A DNA stretch of 22,384 bases from Gracilariopsis chorda (Eukaryota > Rhodophyta > Florideophyceae > Gracilariales > Gracilariaceae). Of this stretch, positions 1-21,878 are shown one piece after another. The stretch is from NCBI GenBank assembly GCA_003194525.1, contig NBIV01001153.1:1-22384 (forward strand), given 5' to 3'. The first letter of the stretch is position 1; each line of letters starts with the position of its first letter. Under the pieces are notes generated by a model. The model saw only the letters and a program-made list of their open reading frames with translations, ran no database searches and was not told the origin of the DNA. The position numbers were made by a program, and so were the translations under genes.

Positions 1-36
1 GGTGCCACAGCTGGTTCTAAGGATGTTGAAGGTGGG
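1..36 (-). pseudogene. Severed downstream part of the ORF interrupted by the element
   Basis: If the retrotransposon and one target duplication are removed, these bases join to 11568 and extend the minus-strand frame of the ORF at 11568-12061 without a stop to the window edge. The sequence is too short to identify a domain. Confidence 0.55.
32..36. repeat. Target-site duplication, left copy (GTGGG)
   Basis: GTGGG lies directly before the TG of the 5' LTR and recurs directly after the CA of the 3' LTR. A 5-bp duplication is typical of Ty3/gypsy integrase. Confidence 0.93.
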
Positions 37-224
37 TGAAGTGCAACGCCCTCAGGGAGGGATTCTTGGTACTTGATTGTTTTCCCGATATTATCGGTTG
101 TGTAGTGTGTATATGAACTACGCCCCACTACGGTGGGTATGGACACGTGGGACACGGTTTTGGGTCAATTGGCGGTTGGCCACAGTAGTGGATGTTGCCA
201 CGGAATGTGGAGTACTTTAGTTAA

Positions 225-240
225 TTTTATTTATTATTTT
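225..240 (+). promoter_or_regulatory. TATA-like AT tract in the 5' LTR
   Basis: TTTTATTTATTATTTT is the only long AT tract in an otherwise GC-rich LTR and lies about 30 bases before the strong hairpin. It repeats at 10944-10959 and, with changes, at about 21245-21260. A role as core promoter is inferred from position and composition. Confidence 0.45.
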
Positions 241-269
241 CACAGCCATTTCTGGGAAGCTAGTACTTA

Positions 270-294
270 GTGCGACGGCGCACTGCCGTCGCAC
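270..294 (+). other. Strong LTR hairpin, 9-bp stem with 7-nt loop
   Basis: GTGCGACGG pairs with CCGTCGCAC around the loop CGCACTG. It is the longest perfect stem I found in the LTR. The same 25 bases occur unchanged at 10989-11013 and in the diverged LTR at 21290-21314, although flanking bases differ there. Its place just after the TATA-like tract suggests a 5' RNA structure, a protein-binding palindrome or a poly(A)-control element. Confidence 0.85.
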
Positions 295-832
295 CAGTAA
301 ACCTTCCCCAACAAGGGACCCCAACCTGGGGAATTGGCTCTGAGCTTTACCGCCTCCGCGTGTTCTCAACTCCTCCTTGGAGGGAAGCACCGTAGTGTAC
401 GGAAGTTCACCCCCTTGCACATCTAAAGGAGACCCATCATTGGGAGTACTAATTGTTCCAATCATATTGGTGTTTCGCCCTGTATAGGGAGTCCTGTCCA
501 CCATCGCCGTATCTACTCGTCGCTCTCGCGACCCACTCGTCCTTCCTCTTTCCCCTTTTTAGGTAGCACCTCCCGCTATCCGCGGCCCTCGTGTGCGCAT
601 CCGCTCACACACCCCCACTTACGTGGAAACATACCTCTACTGAGGACCACACCCCGCTCACGCGGATACCGATTCTTCGCCTTCACCTCCCTGCGCGAGT
701 CGCGACAGGTGTCCCTGGTCTTACAAACCGGCTTCGCCGTGACACCTCTGGGAGGGCTCTACCCAACTGGGTTCACCTCGTGAGAGGAAGATCCCGGACG
801 TCTTTCGGTGTTTTTCCCCTTTGGGGCATTGC

Positions 833-845
833 ACCACAAAGTGGT
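833..845 (+). other. Hairpin across the LTR/primer-site junction
   Basis: ACCAC-AAA-GTGGT (5-bp stem, 3-nt loop) joins the last LTR bases to the start of the presumed primer-binding site. It is preserved at 21856-21868 in the second element. It could hide or present the primer site, or take part in priming; this is inference. Confidence 0.6.
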
Positions 846-855
846 CTCCCGACCT
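842..855 (+). other. Primer-binding site (candidate)
   Basis: TGGTCTCCCGACCT lies three bases after the LTR end and starts with the TGG expected to pair with a tRNA CCA tail. It is identical at 21865-21878 in the second element. The complement would be a tRNA ending CGGGAGACCA; I cannot assign it to a particular tRNA. It is not the common initiator-Met site. Confidence 0.65.
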
Positions 856-943
856 AGAATCAGTTTTTGTTTTCCCTCTTACGAGGTTTGTTTTCATTCA
901 CCGGAAGTTCCGTGATCGTTTCCCGTCGTAACGGTATTTTCTC

Positions 944-3118
944 ATGTCGAGAAATCCCTCCGACGCGGAGCCAGTGGTTACGCGTAGTCGCTCCCGCGAC
1001 AACGCGGACTCTTCCGAAGTTCGGTTCGTACCCCGTATCCCTATACGGACAAGTTCCAGCCGTGCTGGCGCCGCTTCATCGCGGAATGATACCCCCGACC
1101 GGGAACCCCGGAACCTCCTTTTGCCCTCGTTATCACCCCGCAGGGGAATGCAGCATCGACTCCGGCTGTTGCCGCAGTGCCCCAGGCACCCCGGCCTGCT
1201 CCCGCTGTCGCGGCTTCAAGCCCCCATGGAACGGGCGATAACACCCCCAGGGGACTTCCCTGGAATCCCAGGTCCGCGCTCTGTGGACCGCCCATGACAC
1301 CCTTGTAGGGGAACTAAAATCCCTCCAAGAGGTGGTCTCGGCAACCCCCGTAAAGGAGGTCGCCGAGGAGCTCCGTATTTTACGGTCTGACGTCAACTCC
1401 GTGTTGGAGAGTTTGGGGCAACCCGCCGCCTTCATCGAAGGAGTTGAAGCCCGATTTGATCGGATTGGTGCCCGCCTGGAGACGCTGGAGCAGTTCGTCC
1501 TCATGGACAAACCATCCCCGGGTGATCCGGTCAACGAGGCATCGCACAACGACCAGCTTGCTGGGAAGAAGAAACGCCGTCATCGACGGAAACACCACCG
1601 AAAATATTCGGACTCCGATTCTTCGACATCGTCGGACTCACCCCGAAACCATTCGGTTAGCTCGAGCTCCTCGGACTCCGACTCGGAGGACGAGAAGCGA
1701 GGCTACTCCTCCCGCTCGAAGCGGTCATCGGCCACTGAAGGTGTGGTCCGAACCCGCCAGAAGGGGAGAAGACACCCCGGTCTCCGGGAATTGAAACCGA
1801 CAAACCCGGATTACCGGAAGCTTTTATCATACCGGTACTACCGGCTTGAAGATTCGTCACTTGGACGTACGCCCCGTGGTACGGGAAAAGTGCGAGAATG
1901 CATTAAGCGAATGCAGCTCTCGCTCCGCAACCAGTATTTTACTGGAGAGGACCCAGTCCTAGTACTGGATTTCCTATCCCGCTTTGTAGCGGAGGCCCAT
2001 ATCCTCGGTATGAATGAGGGACAAGCCTATTTGGCTTTACCGTATTTCTTACGGGGAGTGGCGGAGGACCAATACACTCTGTCAGAGGATCTTCTCGCGC
2101 CTCCGAGGGAGGAGTTACTTGCTGGCCGGAGGCTGTGCAGTATCTTCTGCGCTCCTACGCCACCAACACCGCTATTCAGCAGGCTATCCTCGCTTTGCGA
2201 GATACACGCCAGCGTGCTGGAGAGACCGAGACCGATTACTCGGTGCGCCTTAACAAGGCTTTCCACAGATGTGGTAACGTATACCCCGCTGGGGAGCGCA
2301 GTACCATGTTCATTGATGGTCTTGACCCGGCAATCCGGAGTTTAGTTACCCGTTATCGGGAGGACAAGCGAAGGATCACCTACCTCGAGCTGGTCCAACA
2401 CGCTCGAGCGGAAGGGGATGCACTTCGTGCAAGAACTCCGAACAATCGGTCTAAATCCGCCAAGGCGTTGTTGCTGGAAAGCGAAGCTTCCTCTCTCCCG
2501 CTCACCGCGGATGGGAACCCTGGACAGGGATTTGATACCGTGCATTTAGCGCAGGGGGATGGTGTGTCGATACCCACCAGTGAGTTACCGTTAACGACGG
2601 AGATGACCCATGATACGGGAACAGAAGATCCCGTTCTATACGGTGGTAACAGTCGGGTTCAACCCCAACGACTCCCGTTTTCAAACGGTCAATCCCGTTA
2701 TCAACGGCCTGGATGGACTGACACCCGCCCTGCGGTTCGCTTCTCCGATACTCGGAATAATCATCCGCGTGTCGCGGTGCTGGCTCTCATTTGCCACCTG
2801 TGCTATGCCCATGGCCATACCTCTCCTCAGTGTATTTGTTCACTGAAGGATATGGCCAAGGTGGTGGCAAATTATGAGGCCCTCACTCCAGAGGAGAAAC
2901 GTTCCGTCCCGACGGCTTCCTACCTCCGTGCTAAAACGGACTTTTCTCACGCCCTACCACAGACCCCGCGTGCGCGGCCAGCTTCATACACCCCGATTCG
3001 GGAGATCACGCAACCATCCGTTGCAACCCCCGCTTATGCGGATAGAAACCCCGTCAACGGGATGAAGCACTCGTTGTCGAGGAAACCAACCCACCGCCGA
3101 AGGCGGAAAACTAACTGA
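944..3118 (+). pseudogene. gag: gag, frame-broken, with CCHC zinc knuckle
   Basis: The ATG at 944 is shared with the second element (21967), where the same first residues follow. The frame then changes at least three times: between about 1070 and 1180, near 1244-1253 (the second element has one more base there), and near 2100-2130. Readable parts in order: a Pro/Ala-rich head; a helical, probably coiled-coil stretch (about 1290-1500); a Lys/Arg-rich tract followed by a Ser/Asp-rich tract (about 1560-1730); the retrotransposon gag domain (about 1900-2420); and a CX2CX4HX4C knuckle (CHLCYAHGHTSPQC) at 2792-2833. Gag would form the particle and bind element RNA through the basic tract and knuckle. 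Several breaks lie in or beside C/G runs or hairpins, so both mutation and sequencing indels are possible. Confidence 0.85.
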
Positions 3119-3131
3119 GGGAGTCTCCCCT

Positions 3132-4000
3132 TTGGGAGAGGCGTCCTCAGACAAGAGGCTGTTGGCGCCCGAGGCGTCCCTGCCTCGCTCCCCGGTGAAA
3201 ATCCTCTCGAGGAAAGACACCGCTGACGCGGACTCTGCGCACCTCGGTGTGTTGCGTCGCCCGTGGATACGGAGTAAAAATCCCCGGATTCCCGGTAGAG
3301 TCTTGATCATGGCCAAGCGCAACTATAAGGTCTATGCCGACCTTGGCCTTGATCCCCAGTTTATGGTGAGGTTTCTCACCGTCCTGGATACAGGTGCAGG
3401 CCCCAACTTCGTTGTGGAATCATTGTTACCCCGCTTGTGCGGTCTCGTATCCGCTCTGACGCGGTCCCCGACATTTCGGATGCGAATAACAACCCGTTAC
3501 AAACGGTGGGCACGGTGGACCTCGTCGTGAGACTTGGTACCTCTGTGGTGAAGTTGGACTTCATCGTTTGCCGTTCATTGGCAGCACCAGTTATACTGGG
3601 ATGTGATTACTGCGACAGATTTGTCGACGCAATCAGGCCCCGCCTCAGGCGTGTAGAACTTGACGACGGATCGTCGGTTCCGATTGTTCGCCGCCCGCTA
3701 AAGCGGTCCTCTCGGAAACAAGTTCCGCTCCCTGCTGCGCAGGAACCACCGCCCGCGTCCCGCGAGTCCACCAAGCTCCGCGTCGCTGCCTCGGTTTCTA
3801 TACCGGCTGAGTCCCAAGTCTGGGTACAGGTAAATTCCCGTCAACACGGTCTTCGGGTTATACAACCCCTCGCCTCGTTGTACGAGAAATCCCAGCTGGC
3901 GCTGGCTAATGGAATTGTCTCCATTTCCCCGGATGTTCCTTTCCGGATATTGGTTGCCAACCTTGGCAAACACCCCAGTATCTGGTCAAACACCAAGTAA
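3132..4000 (+). pseudogene. Retropepsin (aspartic protease) region, frame-broken
   Basis: The first part (3132 to about 3440) contains the active-site motif LDTGAGP with the Asp codon at 3387-3389. The frame then shifts, and the rest of the protease continues from about 3437 to 4000, including the hydrophobic VILGCDYCDRF segment typical of the retropepsin C-terminal half. The last residues of that frame overlap the start of the pol ORF (3909) in a different frame, so a further break lies near 3980-4020. Protease would cut the Gag-Pol precursor into working parts. A programmed shift between gag and pol cannot be excluded, but several unrelated breaks argue for damage or sequence error. Confidence 0.8.
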
Positions 4001-7000
4001 TTGGGAGTGTAACCCCCATCCTATGGGAATGCTGCCAACGAAGATGACAGCCGCCGATGTACTCGGAGTTACCACCTCTTCTGAGGAGTTCACCCCGCCG
4101 TCCGAAGACGTCAAGTCTAAGGAGGGGGAGGAAACCGCTACTTCAGCGTCGAACATACCGAGTAACTCGGAATTGCGAACCACACCTGTTCCACAGGACA
4201 ATGCTCCATCGAGCAATGACCGGATTGATCCGGAAAAAGCACTTGAAGCGCTGGACTTCAGCCACGTGCCAGAGTCGCACCGCGACAAACTCCGTACTAT
4301 GTTACGGGAATTCACCACAATGTGGGATGGCTCGCTTGGCGAGATTGATGCAACGGAACACCGGATCGATTTAATCCCCGGTGCGCGACCGGTTGCACAA
4401 CCCCCTTACAGGGCAGTTCCGAAAGCTCGGGAAGAGGAGCAGTCCCAGGTGGACAAGATGCTCCGCGCAGGTGTGATTGAGCCCGCTCAATCGCCCTGGG
4501 CATCCCCAGTTGTACTGGCTTTAAAGGCTGACGGAACCTGGAGGTTCTGTGTCGACTACCGCCGGCTCAATGCCGTGACTGTTAGGGACACGTACCCCAT
4601 CCCTCGTATGGACGAGTGCATTGACTCACTTGGAGATGCCACCGTGTTCACGGCCCTTGATGCCAATTGGGGATATTGGCAAGTACCTGTCAGACAGGAG
4701 GATCGCGACAAAACCGCATTCACCTGCCATGCAGGAACGTACCGCTTCAAGCGGATGCCATTTGGGTTAACCAACGCCCCCGCCACCTTTCAGCGTGCAG
4801 TAGATATTCTACTCAACCGCTTTAAGTGGCGGAGTTGTCTGGTCTACCTTGATGATATTATCATCTTCTCCAACTCGTTGGACGACCATCTCACTCACGT
4901 CCGAGACGTGCTGACCGTACTCCGCGATGCGGGAATTACCCTCAAGTTGAGGAAATGCGAGTTTTTCACAGATACTGTGAATTATCTGGGTCACATTATC
5001 CGTCCTGGACGGTTAGCGATCGAGAAAGCTCGAGTCAAATCCCTCGTTGAGGCGAAAGAACCCCGTACTCAAACGGAACTGCGCTCCTTTCTGGGGCTGT
5101 TCAACGTCTATCGACGGTTTATCCCGAACTTTTCGGATACTGCAGCGCCCCTGAACGCGTTGTTGCGAAAGGGGAACCCCCCAAAACTGGGAACATTTAC
5201 GCCCGAGCAATCGGAAGCCTTTAACTCCTTGAAGGAGGCTGTCACATCAGCACCAATCCTACATCTCCCAAAACTTGGGTTGCCATACTCCGTAGATACG
5301 GACTCGAGCGACTACCAAGTCGGGTGTGCTCTTTTTCAAACCACCCCCGAGGGGGAAGGACACCCAATTGGTTATTGGTCGCGCTCGCTCAATGTCCATG
5401 AGCGGAACTACTCCGTATCGGAGAAAGAGTGCCTCGCCGTCGTATGGGCGATGACCACTCTGCGCCCCTACCTTATGGGAGTCCATTTCACCGTGTACAC
5501 GGATCATTCCTCACTGAGGTGGTTAATGAATATCTCCGACCCGTCGGGACGCCTCATGCGCTGGAGACTCCGCCTCGCGGAATATGACTTCCAAGTCATT
5601 TATAAAAAGGGCGCGCAGAACACCCAAGCCGACGCTCTGTCGCGTTTACCCACAAGTGGGGAGGCACTCCCAACGGAGGATGATGAAGTCCCATGTTTCA
5701 TGGCAATGGACCCGGATGATCCGGAATGGGCCGTCGAGGCTGAGCCAGAAAACTGGGACGAAGATGCTGACTTCGACTACCTACTCGCATCGCGAGATGA
5801 TTCTGAGAAACCCATACCGGGAAATTATGTACCGGTTGAGACCGAGGAAATGATCCGAGAACAATTCGGGGACCCCTTCTGTACAAGGATACGTGCACGC
5901 CTCAACGGCGGAGAGAACCTCCCCTTCGGGGTGAACGACATTGGTTACCTCGTGAGGACCGTCGAGGCTACCCCACAAGTTGTGGTACCGCACACGCTAC
6001 AGAAGCGGATATTGCACCTTTCGCATTACCCGAAACTCGGGGGACACTCCGGTGGGAGGAAGCTTTATCTAACCCTTCGCAGGGATTTCTACTGGCCCGC
6101 CATGGCGGTTGATTGCTACGCTACGGTGCGGTTTTGCACGCAATGCGCGAAGAACCGGGTCAAACTCCGGAAGCACTCCAAACGGATGAAGCTATTCCCC
6201 ACCAGGGCGCCGCTCGAGTTTGTCGCAATTGACATTCTCGGACCATTGCTCTCTACCAGGAGAGGCAACAAGTTCCTACTCGTTATTACGGACAGGTTCT
6301 CGAAATTAGTTCGGACAGTCCCTCTAAAGAGGATTACCGCCTACACGGTCGCTCACGCCTTTGTGCGGCATTGGGTGTTTGCCTACGGACCTCCTTTGGA
6401 GCTACTTTCCGACAACGGGAAACAGTTCGCATCGCGATTTTTCCAGGACGTCTGTCGGATACTGGACGTGAAGAATCTCTTCACGACCACGTATCATCCC
6501 CAGTCTAATGGGCAGGTCGAGCGTTTCAACCGGACAATGCTCGCAGCTCTCCGTGCTTACACGGCTGACCACCCCAGGACTTGGGATATCTACACGGATG
6601 CCGTGACCTTTGCGTACAATACGCAGGTACACCGGACTACCGGAATATCCCCTTTCGAGTTGGTCCTTTCACGGACACCCCCGCCAATGGCGTTGGAATC
6701 CCAACCTACGTTGGACGCGTTCCCTTCTGTGAAGGATTACCGCCAGAAGTGGAAAGCATGGCTGACCAAGCTGGTACCCGCAGCGCGGAAGGCGATGGAC
6801 CACGCCCAAGCCGTCTACAAACGGAATTTCGATGCTCGCTTGCGAGGAGGCAAACCGGAACAGATCAACTCCGGGGACTTCGTATTCGTCCGCAAGGAGT
6901 ACTACAACCCTGAAAGGGAGAAGCACCATAAGCTCTCGCCTGTGGCGGATGGTCCTTTCAAGGTTATCTCCGTCACGACGGACACAGTGGTTGTGGAAAT

Positions 7001-8039
7001 GGGTGACGCGCATGAGCGGTTATCTCGCGATCGCATCGTGCTAGCTCCGCCACCCTCGACTGAGGCTGCACCAGCTACGCTGGACCCTACGCTGGAATAT
7101 GGCTCTGCATCCGATACATCGGTGGTGAGACGGCCTACCGTGTTACCACACCCCTCCCGGGGACTCTCAGACGTACCGACCCTGTCGGACTCACCGGCTC
7201 AGCCGGGTAATTCGGGCCTCTCTGTGCCCGCCCCTATGGCGCGAGTCTACACCCGCCAGGCGGGGCATGTTATCCCTTATGCCGCCGCTCCGTCTCAGGA
7301 GGGGGAGGAGAACGCTCGTTTTCGAGGAATGAGATCGCCGTCGCAACGGGAAACACGCCGTACCATACGGACAACTGACCGTGGAGCACGGAGTATCTCA
7401 CGCGACACTAATCCCCCGTCCTCGGGCAGCGCTGTGCAACAGGAACCAGACGCGCAGGTCCCGCAAAGGCGGCAAATACACCGTGTTACACGGGAAGCTG
7501 AAACGCAGCTACCGCACACCCCTGTCAGGGAAGGATCCCCGATACGGGAGTACGGCGACAATCGCCCTCAATCCCCTGAGCAGGGAGATGCCTCAAAGCC
7601 GCCATTGGCGGAAGTCCCCGCGGAAGCGGTTCAATCAGGTCGCTCAGACCCGCGCCCCGCGGAGAAGAGGCGCCCAGATACACCAGCGCCGCTGGGAAAT
7701 ACCCACACCCCTATCGGGGAAAAGGGTAGCCAAGCCGCATCCGAAGCTTCAGGCCCTGGCGCGCAGCGCTCGGAAACGCTCCCCGTCGCAGACGGAATCG
7801 AAGCCCCCGTTCCGGGGAATAATTTGCGCCAACCACCGCAACGCTGCGGCGAAGAACCGAGGAACTCGGGAAAAACGCGCGCCATCGCACGCTCGAAACC
7901 GGTCGTACCGGACGCTGCTCCTCCTCATGGAGACGGTGCACCGCACTTAGCGGCCAGGCCCCTGAAAAGGGTGTCATCGGCACCTGCCCGGCACCCCCAA
8001 AGGGGAATTTTGACCAAAATACCGGTGTACCGGAGTTAG
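3909..8039 (+). CDS. pol: Pol polyprotein: reverse transcriptase, RNase H, integrase
   Basis: An open frame of 1376 codons. Reverse transcriptase spans about residues 150-400, with catalytic Asp 251 (LDANWGYWQ) and YLDD at 313-316. RNase H follows, with DTDSSDYQ at 463-470. Integrase has a zinc-binding HHCC domain (first His about 703, CTQC about 742) and the D,D35E triad at Asp 775, Asp 835 and Glu 871, then a GPY/F-type module (DGPFKVI, about 1013-1019). The last 340 residues are a Pro/Arg-rich linker of low conservation and very high hairpin density. The listed start is only the first Met of the frame; in an intact element this would be part of Gag-Pol or Pol. The expected chromodomain is in another frame (8093-8719), so one more frame change lies in the linker. 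All visible RT and integrase catalytic residues are present. Confidence 0.95.
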   Translation: MELSPFPRMFLSGYWLPTLANTPVSGQTPSNWECNPHPMGMLPTKMTAADVLGVTTSSEEFTPPSEDVKSKEGEETATSASNIPSNSELRTTPVPQDNAPSSNDRIDPEKALEALDFSHVPESHRDKLRTMLREFTTMWDGSLGEIDATEHRIDLIPGARPVAQPPYRAVPKAREEEQSQVDKMLRAGVIEPAQSPWASPVVLALKADGTWRFCVDYRRLNAVTVRDTYPIPRMDECIDSLGDATVFTALDANWGYWQVPVRQEDRDKTAFTCHAGTYRFKRMPFGLTNAPATFQRAVDILLNRFKWRSCLVYLDDIIIFSNSLDDHLTHVRDVLTVLRDAGITLKLRKCEFFTDTVNYLGHIIRPGRLAIEKARVKSLVEAKEPRTQTELRSFLGLFNVYRRFIPNFSDTAAPLNALLRKGNPPKLGTFTPEQSEAFNSLKEAVTSAPILHLPKLGLPYSVDTDSSDYQVGCALFQTTPEGEGHPIGYWSRSLNVHERNYSVSEKECLAVVWAMTTLRPYLMGVHFTVYTDHSSLRWLMNISDPSGRLMRWRLRLAEYDFQVIYKKGAQNTQADALSRLPTSGEALPTEDDEVPCFMAMDPDDPEWAVEAEPENWDEDADFDYLLASRDDSEKPIPGNYVPVETEEMIREQFGDPFCTRIRARLNGGENLPFGVNDIGYLVRTVEATPQVVVPHTLQKRILHLSHYPKLGGHSGGRKLYLTLRRDFYWPAMAVDCYATVRFCTQCAKNRVKLRKHSKRMKLFPTRAPLEFVAIDILGPLLSTRRGNKFLLVITDRFSKLVRTVPLKRITAYTVAHAFVRHWVFAYGPPLELLSDNGKQFASRFFQDVCRILDVKNLFTTTYHPQSNGQVERFNRTMLAALRAYTADHPRTWDIYTDAVTFAYNTQVHRTTGISPFELVLSRTPPPMALESQPTLDAFPSVKDYRQKWKAWLTKLVPAARKAMDHAQAVYKRNFDARLRGGKPEQINSGDFVFVRKEYYNPEREKHHKLSPVADGPFKVISVTTDTVVVEMGDAHERLSRDRIVLAPPPSTEAAPATLDPTLEYGSASDTSVVRRPTVLPHPSRGLSDVPTLSDSPAQPGNSGLSVPAPMARVYTRQAGHVIPYAAAPSQEGEENARFRGMRSPSQRETRRTIRTTDRGARSISRDTNPPSSGSAVQQEPDAQVPQRRQIHRVTREAETQLPHTPVREGSPIREYGDNRPQSPEQGDASKPPLAEVPAEAVQSGRSDPRPAEKRRPDTPAPLGNTHTPIGEKGSQAASEASGPGAQRSETLPVADGIEAPVPGNNLRQPPQRCGEEPRNSGKTRAIARSKPVVPDAAPPHGDGAPHLAARPLKRVSSAPARHPQRGILTKIPVYRS
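4506..5012 (+). other. Dense micro-hairpin cluster in the RT domain
   Basis: Nine perfect inverted repeats with at least 5-bp stems and exactly 3-nt loops in 507 bases: 4506-4518, 4686-4698, 4723-4735, 4742-4754, 4851-4865 (6 bp), 4896-4910 (6 bp), 4940-4952, 4965-4981 (7 bp) and 5000-5012. A tenth, 4817-4829, has one G-T pair. About 0.5 would be expected by chance. Confidence 0.9.
5124..6041 (+). other. Micro-hairpin cluster, RNase H to integrase zinc domain
   Basis: Nine exact 5-bp/3-nt hairpins: 5124-5136, 5225-5237, 5267-5279, 5411-5423, 5569-5581, 5712-5724, 5784-5796, 5973-5985 and 6029-6041. About 0.9 would be expected by chance in 918 bases. More exist with 2- or 4-nt loops. Confidence 0.88.
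7176..7911 (+). other. Micro-hairpin cluster in the Pro-rich linker
   Basis: Ten exact 5-bp/3-nt hairpins: 7176-7188, 7194-7206, 7252-7264, 7358-7370, 7379-7391, 7481-7493, 7599-7611, 7805-7817, 7857-7869 and 7899-7911. Other stems have 2- to 5-nt loops, for example 7836-7849. About 0.7 would be expected by chance in 736 bases. Confidence 0.9.
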
Positions 8040-8092
8040 CCTTAGGCAACCCCCCAGTAGCCGGGGACACCACGGCGTCGCCGGAACGTACG

Positions 8093-8719
8093 GTGCAGAG
8101 CGCTCGTGCGCCTGGCAGGGAGGCGGTTTGCCATCCAACCACCGTGTCGCACGGGACCCCCCAGGGGATCGTGGAAACGCCGATTCCGCAGGAGCGGTCA
8201 TCTTCCCGCAAACTCGCGGTTCGTGAGTTCAACCGCGAATGCGGAGTTCAAGTCCCCCGCCGGTTGGCGGTTCGCCTGGCCTACCGTGAAGACGGGAACA
8301 ACGACACCCCAATGGGGAATGACTTGCCGGGGAAAACCGTGACACCACATACCCTCTTGAGGGATATTTTCCCGCATGAGCAGCGGCCACTAGGACAGCG
8401 CACGGCAACGTCGGAGTTATCGCCGAACACCCTGCTAAGGGACATTATACCGCACCGCGGACAACCCTCGCAAGGGAGTACAACCACCACCCGGCACGCC
8501 CGGCAGGTCTACGAACGAGAGTTCGTAGTAGACCGACTTGTCGGACACACCTGGGACCAGGATGGTATTCTACAATACCGCGTCCGCTGGTACGGGTACG
8601 ACCCCAGTGGGGATACGTGGGAGCCAATTGAACATCTCCCACGGTCGCAGATCGTGCGATACCACCGTCAAACGGGAACTGCAGCCCCAGCCACGCTGGT
8701 TAATGCCCAAGTTGGGTAA
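8093..8719 (+). CDS. Chromodomain at the integrase C-terminus (separate frame)
   Basis: This ORF ends in a clear chromodomain at about 8510-8670: EREFVVDRLV, then YRVRWYGYDPSGDTWEP. The three histone-cage aromatics appear as Phe (REF), Trp (VRW) and Tyr (YGY), so methyl-lysine binding is plausible. In chromoviruses this domain is fused to integrase and steers integration to heterochromatin. Here it is in a different frame from pol; that frame is open upstream across the pol stop at 8039, so the domain probably belonged to pol before a frameshift in the Pro-rich linker. No ATG suits a free-standing protein; the listed start is a GTG. Two related segments (TLLRDIFPH and TLLRDIIPH) form a short internal repeat ahead of the domain. 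Confidence 0.85.
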   Translation: MQSARAPGREAVCHPTTVSHGTPQGIVETPIPQERSSSRKLAVREFNRECGVQVPRRLAVRLAYREDGNNDTPMGNDLPGKTVTPHTLLRDIFPHEQRPLGQRTATSELSPNTLLRDIIPHRGQPSQGSTTTTRHARQVYEREFVVDRLVGHTWDQDGILQYRVRWYGYDPSGDTWEPIEHLPRSQIVRYHRQTGTAAPATLVNAQVG

Positions 8720-8912
8720 CGTTGCCGCGCGAGCGGAGGGCAATGAGAAAGGATAGCAAGGGAAAGTCCGCCTAAGACGGGGAATGCTAATTGGAAATCA
8801 CCGTTCTAAACGGGAAAGTTTATTCAGGGGAGCAGCTAGCTCCTCACGATACTACACTACACTAACTGGCATAGCCAGGGAAAGAATACCAGGAAAACTG
8901 GACAAAAGGAGC
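8720..8912. other. Spacer between converging ORFs
   Basis: These 193 bases separate the chromodomain stop from the antisense ORF stop. I see only short inverted repeats and no ORF; 3' ends of sense and antisense transcripts could lie here. Confidence 0.4.
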
Positions 8913-10700
8913 TCACTCTTCGCCGTTGCCCGGGGCGTAACCCCCAGCAAGGCGGTAGGCCAACGCGTCCGCCATGGTGGTGACATCCCCCGATACCTTG
9001 GCAGCGCTAAGACCGGCACCCCGGAGGAAACGTGCGATGATTTCGTTTTCATTCGCCGTCACCCCGCTGGGGATAGAAGGTCCGGCACTTGCCGTTGAAG
9101 GGTCAGCAGCCGGCTCGGCCGGAGATACCCCCTCTGGGAAAGCTTCCGCGCTAGCGCCGGTTTCCTCTACGTCCATCTCCCCGGGTTCTTCCGGTTCGTT
9201 ATCGACCATTGGGTCATCCCCGCCGTATGCGTGGTAGTAGTCGTCAGAATCGACGTACCCCACCGGGTGGTCTTCCGGCACGTGCCGGGGCGCATCGCGA
9301 AGTTCGCGCGCCTCCTCGGAGGAAATTTCCCGGAACTCCCAGGGGTCGAAGTAGATAAAATCACCCGCAAGGGCGGTGTTTCTACCCAGTCCCGGGCCAC
9401 CGGTGTTACCGCTGCCGCCATCCAGACGACCGCTTTGCTCCAGCGGGACCTCACTCCAGCTAACGCTGTCGATGTACCCAAGTAATTGGAGGACCTCTTC
9501 ATTGTTGGCCTGGCCCCCAAGGGGGATGCGAAGATCCAGGTTTCGGATCGCTGCCCGCACACGCGGTTGAAGGAACCAGAGACGATACTGGTCGTACGCC
9601 TCGTTGAGGATATAAGCCGCATTGCGGGCCGCCCACTCCGTAACCACTACGGACCACAACCCCGACCGGGGATCCTGCATGAGCAGCGAACCGAGGTACG
9701 TAAGTACCGGCGGAAGTTCTACGTAGCACCCCCGGCAGGCTTCATGGAAGCGCCACCACTCGGGGAGTGCTACGTACCGACCCAGTCGGTGAGGCGGCGC
9801 AATCCGCTCTATCTCCACGTTCTGATACGGGATGAAATACCCGAATCGGGATCGCCAACGCCGCTCATAGCGGATGAAGTTCTGGAGGAAGTTTGACCGG
9901 TATTGCCGGGAAAGATACCTGAACTCCGCCCGAATGATCGGTCGCTCCCAACAAAGGGCCTCTTGCCGCGCTGCGGGGAAATTCCTCCAAGCGAGGGTCT
10001 CGAGGCGGGACAGGTTCTCGCCGTATCCAATCTCCCCGCGAGTGCGGAAGTGGCTAATGTCGAAGCCAAACTCCGGTGGGACCGGTACATCGAACGGAGC
10101 CCGGCTCTGCCGTTGGTACGCCATGCGCGTCAGCGCGGTCTGCGCCGCAGCGACGGTCTCGCCCGAATTCCTTCGGAGGTGGTGACGCGGAATCGCGATC
10201 CGGTGACGCCAATCCCACGATGTGGTAACTGCTCTGGGCAGATCCCCCGGAAGGGTGTCTGAGCCATCCGCATAAGCGGTGACCAATCCCTCATTGAGGA
10301 CGGCGACCGGGTGAAACCACGGGGCAAGGCGCAGGCGCGACGCGTGATTCCGATTCATCGGGTTGAGCCCCACCAGGGTGTTGTAAGTTGGCCAGTTGGA
10401 CACCGGAGTGGTCCCGGAGGACACCACCGAAGGTGGTAGTGCGAAGGGATGGTCGGCTTCAGCAGCCGTATTTCCCGGTTGTACCGGATTTCGATCGCCC
10501 TGAGGCAGGGGAACTGACCGGAAACCGGTGGTGTATCGCCCGAGAAGTCTCGGAGGTTGGCTGTGGTTGTTGATGTTGTTGTCGTCGTTCATTTCTCCCT
10601 TGTCGAGGGTGGCTGTTGTTGTCGTTTGTGCACTTGAGGACTCTGGTGCAGAGGAATTTACCGGAGAACCGGAGACAAAGCACTTGCTTTTATCACCCAT
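8913..10700 (-). CDS. Antisense accessory ORF, 595 codons, unknown function
   Basis: An uninterrupted frame runs opposite to gag-pol, starting 55 bases from the 3' LTR and ending 193 bases from the chromodomain stop. The N-terminal 60 residues are Ser/Thr/Asn-rich. The middle is rich in Trp, Arg and Tyr (for example ALPEWWRFHEACRGCYVELP) and looks like a folded domain. The C-terminal third is acidic (EPEEPGEMDVEETG) and ends in a short, possibly helical tail. I see no signal peptide, membrane segment, zinc finger or known catalytic motif. Its intact state beside a broken gag suggests real coding selection or a recent source copy. Antisense ORFs between pol and the 3' LTR are known in some plant Ty3/gypsy elements (for example Grande), but I recognise no homology. 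Transcription would have to start in or near the 3' LTR, antisense. Confidence 0.72.
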   Translation of the reverse strand: MGDKSKCFVSGSPVNSSAPESSSAQTTTTATLDKGEMNDDNNINNHSQPPRLLGRYTTGFRSVPLPQGDRNPVQPGNTAAEADHPFALPPSVVSSGTTPVSNWPTYNTLVGLNPMNRNHASRLRLAPWFHPVAVLNEGLVTAYADGSDTLPGDLPRAVTTSWDWRHRIAIPRHHLRRNSGETVAAAQTALTRMAYQRQSRAPFDVPVPPEFGFDISHFRTRGEIGYGENLSRLETLAWRNFPAARQEALCWERPIIRAEFRYLSRQYRSNFLQNFIRYERRWRSRFGYFIPYQNVEIERIAPPHRLGRYVALPEWWRFHEACRGCYVELPPVLTYLGSLLMQDPRSGLWSVVVTEWAARNAAYILNEAYDQYRLWFLQPRVRAAIRNLDLRIPLGGQANNEEVLQLLGYIDSVSWSEVPLEQSGRLDGGSGNTGGPGLGRNTALAGDFIYFDPWEFREISSEEARELRDAPRHVPEDHPVGYVDSDDYYHAYGGDDPMVDNEPEEPGEMDVEETGASAEAFPEGVSPAEPAADPSTASAGPSIPSGVTANENEIIARFLRGAGLSAAKVSGDVTTMADALAYRLAGGYAPGNGEE

Positions 10701-10744
10701 TTTCGTCTGGGAATCCTCCGCGTCCGCGGTCGTTTTCCCGTCTT

Positions 10745-10753
10745 AGGGGGGGA
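10745..10753 (+). other. Polypurine tract
   Basis: AGGGGGGGA, two bases (TA) before the TG of the 3' LTR, is the expected RNase H-resistant primer for plus-strand DNA synthesis. Confidence 0.85.
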
Positions 10754-10755
10754 TA

Positions 10756-11562
10756 TGAAGTGCAACGCCCTCAGGGAGGGATTCTTGGTACTTGATTGTT
10801 TTCCCGATATTATCGGTTGTGTAGTGTGTATATGAAATACGCCCCACTACGGTGGGTATGGACACGTGGGACACGGTTTTGGGTCAATTGGCGGTTGGCC
10901 ACAGTAGTGGATGTTGCCACGGAATGTGGAGTACTTTAGTTAATTTTATTTATTATTTTCACAGCCATTTCTGGGAAGCTAGTACTTAGTGCGACGGCGC
11001 ACTGCCGTCGCACCAGTAAACCTTCCCCAACAAGGGACCCCAACCTGGGGAATTGGCTCTGAGCTTTACCGCCTCCGCGTGTTCTCAACTCCTCCTTGGA
11101 GGGAAGCACCGTAGTGTACGGAAGTTCACCCCCCTTGCACATCTAAAGGAGACCCATCATTGGGAGTACTAATTGTTCCAATCATATTGGTGTTTCGCCC
11201 TGTATAGGGAGTCCTGTCCACCGGCATCGCCGTATCTACTCGTCGCTCTCGCGACCCACTCGTCCTTCCTCTTTCCCCTTTTTAGGGTAGCACCTCCCGC
11301 TATCCGCGGCCCTCGTGTGCGCATCCGCTCACACACCCCCACTTACGTGGAAACATACCTCTACTGAGGACCACACCCCGCTCACGCGGATACCGATTCT
11401 TCGCCTTCACCTCCCTGCGCGAGTCGCGACAGGTGTCCCTGGTCTTACAAACCGGCTTCGCCGTGACACCTCTGGGAGGGCTCTACCCAACTGGGTTCAC
11501 CTCGTGAGAGGAAGATCCCGGACGTCTTTCGGTGTTTTTCCCCTTTGGGGCATTGCACCACA
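10756..11562 (+). repeat. 3' LTR, 807 bp
   Basis: This direct copy of 37-838 differs by one substitution and three small insertions: one C near 11130, GGC near 11223, and one G near 11286. TATA-like tract at 10944-10959, strong hairpin at 10989-11013. It is followed by the GTGGG duplication and host DNA. Confidence 0.97.
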
Positions 11563-11567
11563 GTGGG
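11563..11567. repeat. Target-site duplication, right copy (GTGGG)
   Basis: This is the right-hand match to 32-36. Its GTGG can pair with the CCAC at the LTR end just before it, so the junction itself reads as a short inverted repeat. Confidence 0.93.
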
Positions 11568-12061: not shown

Positions 12062-12139
12062 CTCCTCGATTTTGAAGTATCGGGTCTTTCACCTGAGTTT
12101 CGCCAAGTATGGGACTGTCATAGCAGAAGTATCTTTTCT

Positions 12140-13884
12140 TCAGTATGTAGAGAAAAGCGCTTCAAGAAGTATGAAGAATTCTAGTATGTTTCGTAGTTCA
12201 GGGAACCGCAGACGTTCTTCCTGATAAACCACGGCACATCGAACCATGTGACGACAAGCAAAGCCAACGGACCAGGGCTGCCCACAGGAACAGACACCAA
12301 TAAACTCTGCCTTAACGTCATCCCCCGACCCCGTATACCTTTTTGAGTATTGTACAACAGTCTTCTGTTATGAGCGTTCTTCATCAACCGACGCATTCCG
12401 GCTCTGACTCAGATGGCTTCCCCATTTCAACTTAAAACGAGCTACAGGTCCAATTGCTGGGGTTGAACTACTATCCAGGTTCTAATTGCTTCCAGACACG
12501 CTTCCTGTGAATAATCCACAAACTCTGTGCTGAAAAGAATGTAATTCTTCGAGGGCTTAAAGCTCAAATCTACGAAGTGCGCCAAGGCGTAGTTCGTGTA
12601 CTCAGCCAGCAGGCTGTCTACAACTTCTACAAGTAGAAAGTACTCAAGCTCTCTTGTCTTCCGATATCTCCACTTTGAGAAGATAAGGTTCGTACAAGCT
12701 CCAAGTTCCGGATATCAACCCGTTCTTGGGATATACGCCGAACCTCCAAAGGAACCTTGCACAAGGGAATCTTCTTCGATATAATGATCTTCTTGTATGC
12801 AGAGTTAGAAGATTCGGTGTAGCCAGTTCCTTGGAACATGTAACGGGTAGGCATAGCCGCATTTCGGAAGCAAGACACCAGAATATGCGGCTTGTAGTGG
12901 TACAAGTACTTATACCACACAGGGAGACGATCCTCAAAAGCATCAAAGTACTTGGATTCTAGCATTCTTCTCTTTCGAAAAACGTTTCCGACGTATATGA
13001 CTTTCTGAGGTTGAACAGGTCATTCTTCATATCGTGCATCCACTCCATCTTACCAATCTTTCTACACCAATTGGCCACATTCTCCTTCTGATTCTCGTTC
13101 AGATGCCATTCGTCGAGGTTTATATAGGACGAATTGAACACCTTCTCAGCTGCATTTATACAAGCAGTGTTCTGGTCCATCACTACCATCGCCGGTGAGA
13201 CGGCGACTATAGACTTGAAGTAGGACAGAATTCGTACGAAGTCCTCTTCTGTTTCGGAGCACATGTACCCCATGAAAAATGTAAAAATGTCAACACATGA
13301 CCATCATTGGCTCTTCCATTATTGGTGACCAGAGGTAAACCGTATCTATTGGCTCTGGCTTTACAATCAATAGATACCCCTGAACAATGCCGAACTTCTG
13401 ATAGTCTTCCATCCACTCTCGAAACGACCAACAAGCGTACTTCATCCTACCCGAATCATCCGCAGCGAAGAATCCCTTATTCCCTGCATCTTCCTGGCTC
13501 AACGAAAAGAGCAGGTCACACAACCTTACACATTCCAAATCGCGGGATTGCTTGTGGAGGAAGCATATCTCAACTTCTTCCTCGCCTATACCGGATTATC
13601 TTTTGATTGTACTTGTCTTCCAGGTATCTTATCGTGTCTCTGAAGCTCATATGCAAATCGTTCGTCATATGTATCGCTTCAGAACGCATTTGCGGCTTGA
13701 GATGTCTAATAACAAAGCTCCCATAGGGACCATGTCCATGCTTACAACCATTTAAATTAGCCACGTAGATCATTCCACCATCTTCCTCGTGCCCAGAATC
13801 CTCCGTCTTAATCGTTATCCAGAAGAGGCATCGCCTCATATTGTTATTGTATTGATCGCACTTCAAGATTCCCTTCTTCAGCAC
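12140..13884 (-). pseudogene. Mutator-like (MULE) transposase, frameshifted, with SWIM finger
   Basis: Successive minus-strand frames give the parts of a MULE transposase in order. A CKHGHGPYG segment (about 13740) suggests the N-terminal zinc region. DCKARANRYGLPLV (about 13340) carries the first catalytic Asp in the usual setting. VVMDQNTACINAAEKVF (about 13165) carries the second Asp, followed by the typical DEWHLNENQKEN. MPTRYMFQGTGYTESSNSAYK (about 12820) lies in the C-terminal half. A SWIM finger CXCX9CXH (CSCGQPWSVGFACRH, 12292-12248) leads to a stop at 12140-12142. At least four frame changes separate these parts, so the gene is dead unless some are introns. It would move a DNA transposon by a DDE mechanism. 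I found no terminal inverted repeats. Confidence 0.82.
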
Positions 13885-13929
13885 CCTTCTATTCCACGTT
13901 CAGCACCCTTCTATTCCCACGTTCAGCAC
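13877..13929. repeat. Short tandem duplication, 22-23 bp unit
   Basis: TTCAGCACCCTTCTATTCCACG is followed by the same unit with one extra C, then a 9-base partial third copy. It lies at the presumed N-terminal side of the transposase frame and adds to its disruption. Confidence 0.85.
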
Positions 13930-13981
13930 CACGACTCCTCGGAGACTTTGCCTTATCCGTAGATCGCTTTCGTTCTCCAAA

Positions 13982-14410
13982 CTATATAGAAGTCCTTACG
14001 AATAAGCTGTACCCGAAGCAGTCCGCGATAAATTGAACTTCCTTCAGAACCGTCACACCAGAAGCATTGAGAGGAAGGGTTTCCAGATAGGCTAAGACAG
14101 CTGGTTTAAAACACTCCTCAATTATCTCATTCGGTATCGTGTTCTGTACGGATTCCGTGCCCAGTTCTTCATCACCATCTTCTGTCCAGTACTTTTTGTC
14201 CTTCTCTCCAAGGCCATCCTTCTCCTTTGGTTCTGATTCTTCTTCATTTAGGATGCCACCATCAGAGTCTTCGAAGAAGCATGAAGGAACTTTCTCTTTG
14301 TCATCTAAGAATGGATCAATGAGCAGCGCCTCCTCTTCTTCAACGGATTTCTCATTTGAAAACCTGCTGCGCATATGCAACGTTTGCGTTGAGAGTTTCA
14401 CTATCCTCAC
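13982..14410 (-). CDS. Acidic ORF upstream of the MULE transposase, possibly its N-terminal part
   Basis: A 142-codon open frame on the transposase strand. The first 95 residues are strongly acidic (SVEEEEALLIDPFLDDKEK, EEESEPKEKDGLGEKDKK). The end (VQFIADCFGYSLFVRT) is a mixed hydrophobic segment of the sort found before FAR1/MULE N-terminal domains. It may be the original N-terminus of the transposase, cut off by a frameshift near 13980. No domain can be named with certainty. Confidence 0.4.
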   Translation of the reverse strand: MRIVKLSTQTLHMRSRFSNEKSVEEEEALLIDPFLDDKEKVPSCFFEDSDGGILNEEESEPKEKDGLGEKDKKYWTEDGDEELGTESVQNTIPNEIIEECFKPAVLAYLETLPLNASGVTVLKEVQFIADCFGYSLFVRTSI

Positions 14411-14421
14411 TCATTTTGAGC

Positions 14422-14904
14422 CTAATTCGGCTCCCACAGCGCTGTGGGTGCACGCTCGCATTTCGCGTCCACTGTTTGTGTTGAGGAATTTGGAAAAGCA
14501 GCAGGGGGGTCAGCTTCAAAAGAGCTAATGCCAAAATCGCCTCCTACGCCACTCTCGACGGTAAACGCGTTATCCAGAAGTCCATCCGAGCATTTTACAT
14601 CGTTTACGTCACCTTTCCCGATGCCTTCCCGCTGAGATAGGTCCTTGCTGCGGCCTCTTCGGTAGATTGGAAACCGGCCTACCTCCTTCCTGCGAAACCG
14701 AGGAGTGTTGCTTCCAAAGCTCGGCTTTGGGCTCGTGCACTCCTCTTTGCGAAGCACGGCCATCAAAAACACCTCCCCTCTCAGGGAATTTCGTGATATG
14801 CAACACGCAATAGAAAGGATAAAATTCCTCAGCCCCACTGGAGTCGCCATACGCCATATCGTCTTCGCTACCTGTTTCTGCATTGACTTAAGATAAAGGT
14901 CCAT
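14422..14904 (-). CDS. Hypothetical ORF, 160 codons
   Basis: An open minus-strand frame ending 12 bases before the acidic ORF at 14410, in another frame. The N-terminus is hydrophobic and basic, the middle Arg/Lys/Ser-rich, the end Pro/Thr-rich. I see no recognisable domain. It may be an exon or fragment of the same decayed gene as its neighbour, or a chance ORF. Confidence 0.25.
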   Translation of the reverse strand: MDLYLKSMQKQVAKTIWRMATPVGLRNFILSIACCISRNSLRGEVFLMAVLRKEECTSPKPSFGSNTPRFRRKEVGRFPIYRRGRSKDLSQREGIGKGDVNDVKCSDGLLDNAFTVESGVGGDFGISSFEADPPAAFPNSSTQTVDAKCERAPTALWEPN

Positions 14905-15138
14905 GTGAATGCTCTAGGAGGTAGCATGATGAGCTGTTTGTAGAACTCGGCTCCTGGAAGGGAGGTATGGTTCGAAATATGCATGACAGACGTACATATT
15001 CTCCCCATTTTTCAGTATGTGCTCTTCTCATTCTTGTAGACGGGAGGCTAAAGAGGAGCGAATGCCCTCAAACCTCCTTTTCACAACATCATCAGGCATG
15101 GAAGTTGTTGGGGGGTATGCGTGTGTATCAGGTCCTGT
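14905..15138. other. No feature seen
   Basis: These 234 bases between hypothetical minus-strand ORFs hold no recognisable gene, repeat or dense hairpins. Confidence 0.4.
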
Positions 15139-16987: not shown

Positions 16988-17197
16988 TCAAATCGCTACA
17001 TATTTCCGAAACAGGTTTTGTAACTGTGTACCAAAGAAACTAGTGATGTTTTCTTTGCCTTCTGCGATCAGGATTCTGGCTACATGGTCCTTCACAACCA
17101 CAAAAAGGACTTCGGAACTCGCAGTGCAATCGCTGAGCTCATTGCGTACGCTTTTCAAGATTCTCTCAGAACGACGTAAAGGTTTCATATAGTTCAT
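16988..17197 (-). CDS. Short hypothetical ORF, 69 codons
   Basis: A minus-strand frame whose translation has ordinary protein character (SDCTASSEVLFVVVKDHVAR, then a mixed helical tail). It has no recognisable family. It may be an exon or remnant of the decayed minus-strand region, or chance. Confidence 0.2.
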   Translation of the reverse strand: MNYMKPLRRSERILKSVRNELSDCTASSEVLFVVVKDHVARILIAEGKENITSFFGTQLQNLFRKYVAI

Positions 17198-21861: not shown

Positions 21862-21864
21862 AAG

Positions 21865-21878
21865 TGGTCTCCCGACCT
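21865..21878 (+). other. Primer-binding site of the second element
   Basis: Identical to 842-855, three bases after the LTR end. Confidence 0.65.

What the first reader, a model, noticed from the sequence alone, without database searches (positions are those of the whole stretch)
85..11562. An LTR retrotransposon paved with 5-bp/3-nt micro-hairpins
Seen directly: 28 perfect inverted repeats of stem 5 or more and loop exactly 3 were checked base by base in three pol blocks totalling about 2.16 kb (4506-5012, 5124-6041, 7176-7911), where chance predicts about two (one per 1024 start positions at even base use, similar at 55% GC). Stems favour CC...GG ends; loops are variable; spacing is irregular and not tied to codon phase. 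The pattern covers LTRs, gag, pol, linker and the antisense ORF, but not the flanking host DNA by eye. Inference: either selection for a distributed RNA/ssDNA structure (many Gag-binding packaging sites, compaction of an 11-kb genome, shielding from long dsRNA and RNAi, control of RT pausing) or a replication process that keeps turning near-palindromes into palindromes. I know of no described retroelement system with this architecture.
Basis: seen in the sequence. Interest (0 to 1): 0.93.

Follow-up and report, generated by a model that had tools for sequence, protein, structure and literature searches.

The report
Red-algal retrotransposon paved with selected micro-hairpins
A very common jumping element in the genome of the red seaweed Gracilariopsis chorda carries over two hundred tiny perfect hairpins along its length, and comparison of its copies indicates that natural selection keeps them while the element spreads, which points to an unrecognised structural code in a retrotransposon.

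Summary
The element (37-11562, a Ty3/gypsy chromovirus of Gracilariopsis chorda) holds 96 stem>=5/loop-3 hairpins in 37-10755 against 11.8 in dinucleotide shuffles (max 23 of 200) and exceeds every codon shuffle in all five ORFs tested. Three host ORFs and the host flank show no excess. The unit is 5'-[A/C]CC...GGA-3', 11-14 nt, without G.U tolerance, and bounded: CC/GG is the outermost pair (7 of 163 extended, 36 expected). In 44 copies over 3000-7100, private mutations hit stems almost as often as elsewhere, but variants in three or more copies nearly avoid them (3 versus 119; p=4e-5), and loops are free; mutation does not over-produce hairpins (9 gains, 8.1 expected). Many hairpins keep their place at 60-75% DNA identity; paired changes are suggestive only (11 of 22 versus 33 of 112, p=0.08). 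A relative (53% protein identity) has the same 5-bp/3-nt geometry (27 versus 4.4) without the CC/GG rule. This favours selection on a distributed single-strand hairpin array over a copying error.

The parts
37..11562 (+). whole LTR retrotransposon copy (Ty3/gypsy chromovirus)
   Evidence: two LTRs 99.26% identical, TG...CA ends, 5-bp TSD; Pfam RVT_1, RNase H, H2C2, rve, Chromo
32..36 (.). left target-site duplication GTGGG
   Evidence: seen in sequence; printed
11563..11567 (.). right target-site duplication GTGGG
   Evidence: seen in sequence; printed
37..838 (+). 5' LTR, with hairpins (e.g. 85-97, 319-331, 390-402, 458-470)
   Evidence: CC..GG hairpins 27.3 per kb over 37-843
10756..11562 (+). 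3' LTR
843..862 (+). probable tRNA primer-binding site
   Evidence: TGG... just inside the 5' LTR, read; inference
10745..10752 (+). probable polypurine tract
   Evidence: AGGGGGGG before the 3' LTR, read; inference
1332..3118 (+). gag-like ORFs (1332-2345 and 2135-3118, two frames in this copy), with a CX2CX4HX4C zinc knuckle near 2792-2833
   Evidence: no Pfam hit; knuckle read by eye; 5/3 hairpins 14 and 7 versus codon-shuffle means 1.6 and 1.2 (max 11 and 6 of 1000)
3437..4000 (+). ORF between gag and pol (protease-like by position only)
   Evidence: no Pfam hit; 5/3 hairpins 6 versus 0.6, max 4 of 1000
3909..8039 (+). pol: RT, RNase H, integrase and a variable tail; 45 stem>=5/loop-3 hairpins
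   Evidence: 45 versus 5.8, max 16 of 1000 codon shuffles
8093..8719 (+). chromodomain ORF (separate frame in this copy)
   Evidence: Pfam Chromo 3.1e-11
8913..10700 (-). antisense ORF of 595 aa, no Pfam domain, with relatives in Gracilariopsis chorda and Gracilaria domingensis
   Evidence: 12 5/3 hairpins versus 2.9, max 9 of 1000
4506..5012 (+). block 1: 10 stem>=5/loop-3 hairpins
5124..6041 (+). block 2: 11 stem>=5/loop-3 hairpins
7176..7911 (+). block 3: 14 stem>=5/loop-3 hairpins; those at 7599 and 7783 keep pairing in copy L057 although both partners of a pair changed
8142..8154 (+). example of a hairpin whose inner pair and loop are replaced in L057 with pairing kept

Best explanation
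The element carries a distributed cis-acting array of about 230 short, bounded, Watson-Crick-only hairpins (4-5 bp stem, 3-4 nt loop, base CC/GG, A after it on the + strand), kept by purifying selection while the element replicates. Shown here: excess, geometry, boundedness, absence of wobble tolerance, avoidance of stems but not loops by spread variants (3000-7100), persistence of many positions, and a relative with the same geometry. Inferred: the hairpins act on a single-stranded form of the genome (genomic RNA or first-strand cDNA), because only pairing explains complementary arms of varying sequence; they are recognised by shape plus stem base rather than loop; and the most likely reader is an element-encoded nucleic-acid-binding protein (the Gag zinc knuckle, or less likely the antisense-ORF product) that uses many weak sites to select and condense the roughly 11-kb genome into particles.
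For: Excess over dinucleotide and codon shuffles. CC..GG 246 versus 23.1 (max 38 of 200); GG..CC 32 versus 22.2 (max 39), i.e. near chance. Given CC..GG and the other inner pairs, the remaining inner pair is Watson-Crick in 61 of 66, 61 of 69 and 61 of 76. Outward extension avoided: 2 of 60, 5 of 87, 0 of 16 against 12.8, 21.0, 2.5 expected. A is the commonest base after GG in LTR+gag, pol and antisense ORF. Selection: private variants stem/other 88/510, variants in >=3 copies 3/119 (p=3.8e-5); synonymous only, private 26/175, in >=2 copies 2/89 (p=0.0024); hairpin losses among shared variants 11 against 27.3 expected. Divergence in 7090-8700: stems 0.018 and 0.035, loops 0.110 and 0.196, flanks 0.091 and 0.129 (L043, L049); stems 0.249, loops 0.538, flanks 0.481 (L057). 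Same centre in 11 of 19 (75% identity, L043) and 18 of 46 (60% identity, L057); 0.4 and 0.9 expected for independent placement. L074, a relative in another record: 27 versus 4.4 (max 13 of 200).
Against: Only 98 of 229 hairpins exceed 0.5 pairing probability in local RNA folding (mean 0.42; shuffle-made hairpins 0.31). G.U is no commoner than A.C among near-hairpins (45 versus 49; 14 versus 23), unusual for an RNA structure. Paired changes do not exceed the slid-partner control significantly: 11 of 22 versus 33 of 112, p=0.08 in L057 7090-8700; 3-5 of 8-11 versus 6-9 of 36-42 in 5900-7090, p=0.11-0.67. In 5900-7090 stems differ (0.220-0.256) hardly less than flanks (0.241-0.281). In L057 7090-8700 27 of 46 hairpins are broken; L048 keeps 12 of 46 there (the copy lacks much of that stretch). 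In the old relative L068 almost no positions are kept (3 of 67 and 0 of 18 intact). No loop motif and no regular spacing. The CC/GG rule is not seen in L074. The selection test covers only 3000-7100, not the LTRs or the antisense ORF. No binding or probing data exist.
Confidence: 0.42

Rival explanations
1. Generic genome-scale ordered RNA structure: what matters is that the RNA is folded everywhere (hiding from host RNA surveillance or RNAi, or limiting long duplexes), without a specific reader.
For: Mean folding z of 150-nt windows -1.55 to -2.07 on the + strand in LTR, gag, PR-pol and tail versus -0.40 in host flank. The frequency pattern (single changes equal, recurrent changes at unpaired sites) is the one reported for SARS-CoV-2 (PMC7642675, passages).
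Against: Bounded fixed-size unit with CC/GG base, no wobble tolerance, many positions kept, whereas that paper reports mostly displaced, non-homologous pairings. Predicted RNA folding only weakly favours the hairpins.
Confidence: 0.22
2. The hairpins serve on single-stranded DNA: first-strand cDNA (or its complement) folds into beads, for compaction, protection or strand transfer, so only Watson-Crick pairs count.
For: Watson-Crick pairing without G.U preference; the CC..GG unit reads the same on both strands; weak RNA fold prediction.
Against: A follows GG on the + strand, T does not equally precede CC; + strand RNA pairing probability slightly above - strand (0.42 versus 0.36, p=0.03). Nothing here separates cDNA from RNA directly.
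Confidence: 0.2
3. A copying error, such as intrastrand template switching by the element's reverse transcriptase, keeps converting near-palindromes to perfect ones; no function.
For: Geometry without base preference in L074; Watson-Crick-only pairing; examples of pairs with both sides changed.
Against: Private variants do not over-produce hairpins: 9 gains, 8.1 expected, of 598 (many private variants may be host mutations after insertion, which weakens this). Correction should leave as many spread changes in stems as outside; variants in >=3 copies are 3 in stems versus 119 elsewhere. Stems stop at CC/GG; CC..GG is favoured and GG..CC is not.
Confidence: 0.08
4. Dispersed inverted-repeat binding sites in double-stranded DNA for a dimeric host factor (for example a CCG...CGG zinc-cluster type site; recalled).
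For: CC..GG with an 11-14 nt span; third pair often G-C.
Against: Independent half-sites would not make variable inner bases complementary (61 of 66 against 24.3 expected), and L074 has the geometry without the CC/GG rule.
Confidence: 0.04
5. Chance, base composition, codon usage or protein sequence.
For: None found.
Against: Exceeds all 200 dinucleotide shuffles and all 1000 codon shuffles in each of five ORFs; three host ORFs stay inside their shuffles.
Confidence: 0.01

Closest known systems
Genome-scale ordered RNA structure (GORS) of plus-strand RNA viruses
   Same: hundreds of short stem-loops along coding sequence; excess folding energy; recurrent changes avoid paired sites (PMC7642675, passages)
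   Different: here the unit has a narrow size, CC/GG base, no wobble, many kept positions, and sits in an LTR retrotransposon including its LTRs and antisense ORF
Dispersed packaging signals of ssRNA viruses (MS2, picornaviruses, HBV pregenome)
   Same: many short stem-loops spread along the genome, proposed to bind the coat protein (PMC6281560, passages)
   Different: those share a recognition motif (MS2: loop motif and bulged A); here loops are free and the stem base is shared; about 230 sites, no binding data
Ty3 and Ty1 genomic RNA structure
   Same: LTR retrotransposon RNA with structured regions; UTRs and POL needed for Ty3 RNA localisation and packaging (PMC11381356, passages)
   Different: no hairpin array of one geometry appeared in the passages seen; the Ty3 well-folded core covers about 19.4%
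Short-range template-switch palindromes (recalled)
   Same: perfect short inverted repeats
   Different: no mutational gain excess, bounded stems, stem avoidance by spread variants
Iterated palindromes of algal organelle genomes and HIP1 of cyanobacteria (recalled; one green-algal mitochondrial example in a search listing)
   Same: dense short palindromes
   Different: here variable-sequence hairpins inside one nuclear retroelement family, including its genes

Membership tests
Ty3/gypsy chromovirus | RT-RNase H-integrase order in pol | tested here: met
   Pfam order along window:3909-8039
Ty3/gypsy chromovirus | chromodomain downstream of integrase | tested here: met
   PF00385 3.1e-11 in 8093-8719, a separate frame in this copy; many of the 120 listed relatives have it in the same protein
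Ty3/gypsy chromovirus | LTRs, TSD, PBS, PPT | tested here: met
   LTRs and TSD; PBS and PPT by inspection only
Genome-scale ordered RNA structure | folding energy below composition-matched shuffles along the genome | tested here: met
   mean z -1.55 to -2.07 on + strand; antisense-ORF part only -0.78 (- strand -1.55); dinucleotide, not codon, shuffles
Genome-scale ordered RNA structure | pairings turn over quickly between relatives, as described for coronaviruses | tested here: inconclusive
   many centres kept at 60-75% identity, but almost none in the old relative L068
Genome-scale ordered RNA structure | ordinary RNA pairing with G.U tolerated (recalled) | tested here: not met
   G.U not above A.C; only the loop-closing pair leans to G.U, 7 versus 0 of 15
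Dispersed packaging signals | many stem-loops with a shared recognition motif | tested here: inconclusive
   shared stem base CC/GG and 3' A, no loop motif; rule not seen in L074
Dispersed packaging signals | capsid or Gag protein binds them | not testable with these tools
   no binding data
Template-switch palindromes | mutation itself produces perfect hairpins | tested here: not met
   private variants: 9 gains, 8.1 expected, of 598

The most novel reading that the evidence does not exclude
A retroelement genome written in a second, shape-based code: hundreds of size-limited, Watson-Crick-only micro-hairpins at largely kept places, superimposed on genes on both strands and on the LTRs, read by a dedicated element protein; the geometry (5 bp/3 nt) is shared between species while the base rule (CC/GG) is lineage-specific.
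Probability: 0.35. Interest if true: 0.95.

Novelty: new variant of a known kind. Interest (0 to 1): 0.82.

Why it matters
It would make the question of how retroelement genomes are recognised and condensed testable, and it shows that dense overlapping constraint can coexist with coding on both strands.

Tried and rejected
Host-wide property: rejected; three host ORFs (two in L069, one in L065) lie inside codon shuffles, and host flank and four of five random 4-kb loci show no CC..GG excess. The fifth, L068, proved to be an old relative of the element. Against a clean contrast: random locus L066 has 9 loop-3 hairpins versus 3.8 (max 8 of 30), without CC..GG excess (4 versus 2.8) and with longer palindromes; and L068 exceeds shuffles in CC..GG (20 versus 5.0, max 10) but not in loop 3 (7 versus 3.6, max 8).

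Property of all retroelements there: none of six Copia loci exceeds its shuffles in loop 3 or CC..GG (L063 and L064 have identical counts, so they are probably near-identical copies). L059 has a moderate excess at loops 6-12, left as a lead. Property of all gypsy-like elements: L070-L073, L075, L076 (33-40% identity) and L077, L078, L080 (28-38%) do not exceed the shuffle maximum in loop 3; L077 reaches it in CC..GG (9 versus 3.0, max 9). Regular spacing: CV 0.68, random range 0.65-0.84. Loop motif: none. RNA-only folding: weak. Covariation: suggestive, not significant. Structure of the antisense protein: model too poor to search (pLDDT 44.5). Relatives in viral contigs: none found.

The first version of the polymorphism test treated two overlapping sets of one subfamily as separate groups (copy C2:248501 was in both); it was redone with merged groups and that duplicate removed, and only those numbers are used. 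Two pairs of copies are identical (L005/L006, L017/L012), may be assembly duplicates, and were kept. Rows dropped: of 57 aligned loci, nine repeats of the same place or of the window itself, L040 (duplicate), and L048, L049, L057 (mosaic or intermediate), leaving 17 + 27 = 44; variants carried by more than half of a group were not counted.
Full report
What was asked.

The element. The window lies on contig C1038 of a 91.3-Mb, 1081-contig assembly. A prolyl-tRNA synthetase ORF from contig C51 of that assembly is 100% identical, over 89% of the ORF, to the Gracilariopsis chorda protein, whose listed contig has the same length (362,139) as C51, so the host is taken to be the red alga G. chorda. 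The element runs from 37 to 11562: LTRs 37-838 and 10756-11562 (99.26% identical), GTGGG on both sides. Pol has RT, RNase H, H2C2 and integrase domains, followed by a chromodomain ORF, hence a Ty3/gypsy chromovirus. This copy is split over several frames; by my count 20 of 111 scored copies show a single open frame of 1,875-1,887 aa with no stop in the match. A 595-aa antisense ORF (8913-10700) has no Pfam domain; six relatives were found, among them proteins of G. chorda and Gracilaria domingensis, and 62 of 74 scored genomic copies have no stop in it. The family is very abundant: 4707 first-look candidates for the RT query, 111 scored.

The observation. Stem>=5/loop-3 hairpins: 35 in the three blocks and 100 in 85-11562, against 12.6 (max 22) in 100 dinucleotide shuffles. 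In 37-10755: 96 against 11.8, max 23 of 200. Against 1000 codon shuffles each (mean, max): gag ORFs 14 (1.6, 11) and 7 (1.2, 6), 3437-4000 6 (0.6, 4), pol 45 (5.8, 16), antisense ORF 12 (2.9, 9). Three host ORFs stay inside their 500 shuffles (0, 1 and 3 observed). Host flank 12100-21000: 10 against 9.7. One random host locus, L066, does exceed its shuffles in loop 3 (9 versus 3.8, max 8 of 30) but without the CC..GG class.

The grammar. Maximal hairpins with stem >=4 and loop >=3 cluster at 4 bp/4 nt (133), 4 bp/3 nt (97) and 5 bp/3 nt (90). The stem base is CC/GG; CC..GG hairpins of at least 4 bp and span 11-14 number 246 (229 without overlap) against 23.1, while GG..CC number 32 against 22.2. 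Density by region is 15.5-30.8 per kb against 0.7 per kb in host flank. Inner bases vary but pair: when CC..GG and the other two inner pairs are Watson-Crick, the remaining one is too in 61 of 66, 61 of 69 and 61 of 76 cases. The unit is bounded: an outward Watson-Crick extension occurs in 2 of 60, 5 of 87 and 0 of 16 hairpins of three size classes, against 12.8, 21.0 and 2.5 expected from base use. An A follows GG on the + strand in 36 of 70, 47 of 83 and 12 of 25 unextended hairpins in LTR+gag, pol and antisense ORF, whereas T before CC, the mirror image, is seen in 25 of 178. The asymmetry is weakest in the antisense ORF: with a slightly different selection A follows in 10 and T in 9 of 23 there. 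Loops show no motif and spacing is not regular.

No wobble. Among near-hairpins with one non-Watson-Crick pair, G.T is not commoner than A.C: 45 versus 49 in the 5/3 class, 14 versus 23 for CC-based ones in 85-8900 and 7 versus 5 in the antisense-ORF part. At the loop-closing position alone G.T is 7 and A.C 0 of 15. A pure sense-RNA constraint normally tolerates G.U (general knowledge), so this counts against it or asks for a strict reader or a DNA form.

Folding. 150-nt windows fold better than shuffles on the + strand (mean z: LTR -2.07, gag -1.92, PR-pol -1.58, tail -1.55; host -0.40); in the antisense-ORF part the - strand is the better folder (-1.55 versus -0.78). Yet only 98 of 229 non-overlapping hairpins have mean pairing probability above 0.5 (mean 0.42; - strand 0.36; hairpins arising in shuffles 0.31, 46 of 160 above 0.5).

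Copies. The 20 stretches fetched have 28-47 stem>=5/loop-3 hairpins in 3.3-4.8 kb, against 47 in the same window part (no shuffles were run on them). In 44 copies (17 + 27) over window 3000-7100, private variants fall 88 in stems and 510 elsewhere, variants in at least three copies 3 and 119 (Fisher p=3.8e-5), in at least two copies 10 and 193 (p=1.1e-4). Synonymous only: private 26 and 175, in at least two copies 2 and 89 (p=0.0024); in at least three copies 2 and 55 (p=0.052, not significant alone). Hairpin-losing variants among 203 shared ones: 11 against 27.3 expected; among 598 private ones 76 against 91.7. Hairpin-gaining variants: private 9 against 8.1, shared 6 against 3.6 (all). So new mutations neither avoid stems strongly nor create hairpins; stems are cleared when variants spread. 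Variants in two or more copies number 21 on 278 loop sites, 172 on 3179 outside sites and 10 on 644 stem sites (sums). Many private variants may be host mutations after insertion, so the gain test bears on reverse transcription only in part. One search replaces, whose grouping double-counted.

Persistence and paired changes. In 7090-8700, stems differ from copies L043 and L049 at 0.018 and 0.035 per base, loops at 0.110 and 0.196, flanks at 0.091 and 0.129; from L057 (60% identity) stems 0.249, loops 0.538, flanks 0.481. In 5900-7090 the contrast is small: stems 0.220-0.256, loops 0.267-0.347, flanks 0.241-0.281 in five copies. At 73-75% identity (5900-7090) 8-12 of 19 hairpins keep their centre (0.3-0.4 expected for independent placement, which ignores common descent); at 60% (L057, 7090-8700) 18 of 46 (0.9 expected); L048 keeps 12 of 46 in that part but lacks much of it. 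Five L057 hairpins are intact with both partners of at least one pair changed, e.g. CCGTCgcaGACGG to CCGTTcatAACGG at 7783 and CCGTGtcgCACGG to CCGCGtgaCGCGG at 8142; 8 more are intact, 27 broken, 6 gapped. Of true pairs with both sides changed 11 of 22 pair, of slid partners 33 of 112 (p=0.08); in 5900-7090 3-5 of 8-11 against 6-9 of 36-42 (p=0.11-0.67). Covariation is therefore a lead, not proof. Five of the 20 stretches were used.

Breadth. The random locus L068 is an old relative (70-73% identical DNA segments) with 20 CC..GG hairpins against 5.0 (max 10 of 30), but its positions do not match (3 of 67 and 0 of 18 intact). L074, a contig in a Robiginitomaculum MAG encoding a 53%-identical pol fragment, has 27 loop-3 hairpins against 4.4 (max 13 of 200); CC..GG 14 versus 5.4 and GG..CC 18 versus 4.9, so no CC/GG preference. 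Its longer ORF exceeds all 500 codon shuffles (18; mean 4.1, max 10), its shorter does not exceed the maximum (10; mean 1.7, max 11). L070-L073, L075, L076 (33-40% identity) and L077, L078, L080 (28-38%) do not exceed their shuffles in loop 3. So the geometry seems older than the base rule and limited, as far as sampled, to this clade; one relative is a thin sample.

Mechanism. Complementary arms of varying sequence require pairing within one strand. Selection acts in cis on the spreading lineage. The bounded size, stem-base rule and free loop suggest recognition of shape and base rather than of a loop. The simplest reader is an element-encoded nucleic-acid-binding protein; gag carries a zinc knuckle (by eye). 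Packing of genomic RNA or cDNA by many weak sites is my best guess, at 0.42; cDNA-level function, generic folding and mutation bias are the rivals.

Literature. Searches on retrotransposon with hairpins, template switching and palindromes (15 of 21 papers listed), LTR retrotransposon packaging stem-loops (2 of 2), GORS with retrotransposon (5 of 5), Ty1 and SHAPE (8 of 25), dispersed packaging signals (8 of 11), and red algae, LTR retrotransposon, hairpin, palindrome (12 of 94) showed no title or abstract start describing such an array; passages of PMC7642675, PMC11381356 and PMC6281560 were seen, nothing was read whole. The library is partial, so this does not show that none exists.

Noticed in passing
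21057-22384: A second, 78-95% similar copy of the same family begins here (LTR and gag start) and runs off the contig.
   Followed up: partly
8913-10700 (-): 595-aa antisense ORF without Pfam domain, without stop in 62 of 74 scored copies and with relatives in Gracilariopsis chorda and Gracilaria domingensis; AlphaFold model too poor to interpret.
   Followed up: partly
270-294 (and 10989-11013): A 10-bp/5-nt perfect hairpin in the LTR, much longer than the bounded class; possibly a separate LTR signal.
   Followed up: no
L059: A Copia-type element of the same genome has a moderate excess of stem>=5 hairpins with loops 6-12 (76 versus 33.2, max 60 in 60 shuffles; 63 versus 35.7, max 56 in 200 codon shuffles), a different geometry.
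   Followed up: partly
about 5684-7090 in L049, L043, L039 and others: Mosaic structure: this part of pol is about 75-78% identical to the window copy while the part before it is 97-98%, suggesting recombination between subfamilies.
   Followed up: no
L074: A contig binned into a Robiginitomaculum MAG encodes a relative of this algal retroelement, so the bin probably contains eukaryotic DNA.
   Followed up: partly
L066: A random host locus with several long perfect palindromes (e.g. 9-bp arms around one base near 1765).
   Followed up: no
12100-16500: Host stretch with more stem>=5 inverted repeats at loops 13-20 than shuffles (60 versus 35.5, max 56 in 60 shuffles); nature unknown.
   Followed up: no
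11553-11567: The target duplication GTGGG is complementary to the LTR end CCAC, so insertion created a short palindrome at the 3' junction; may be chance.
   Followed up: no
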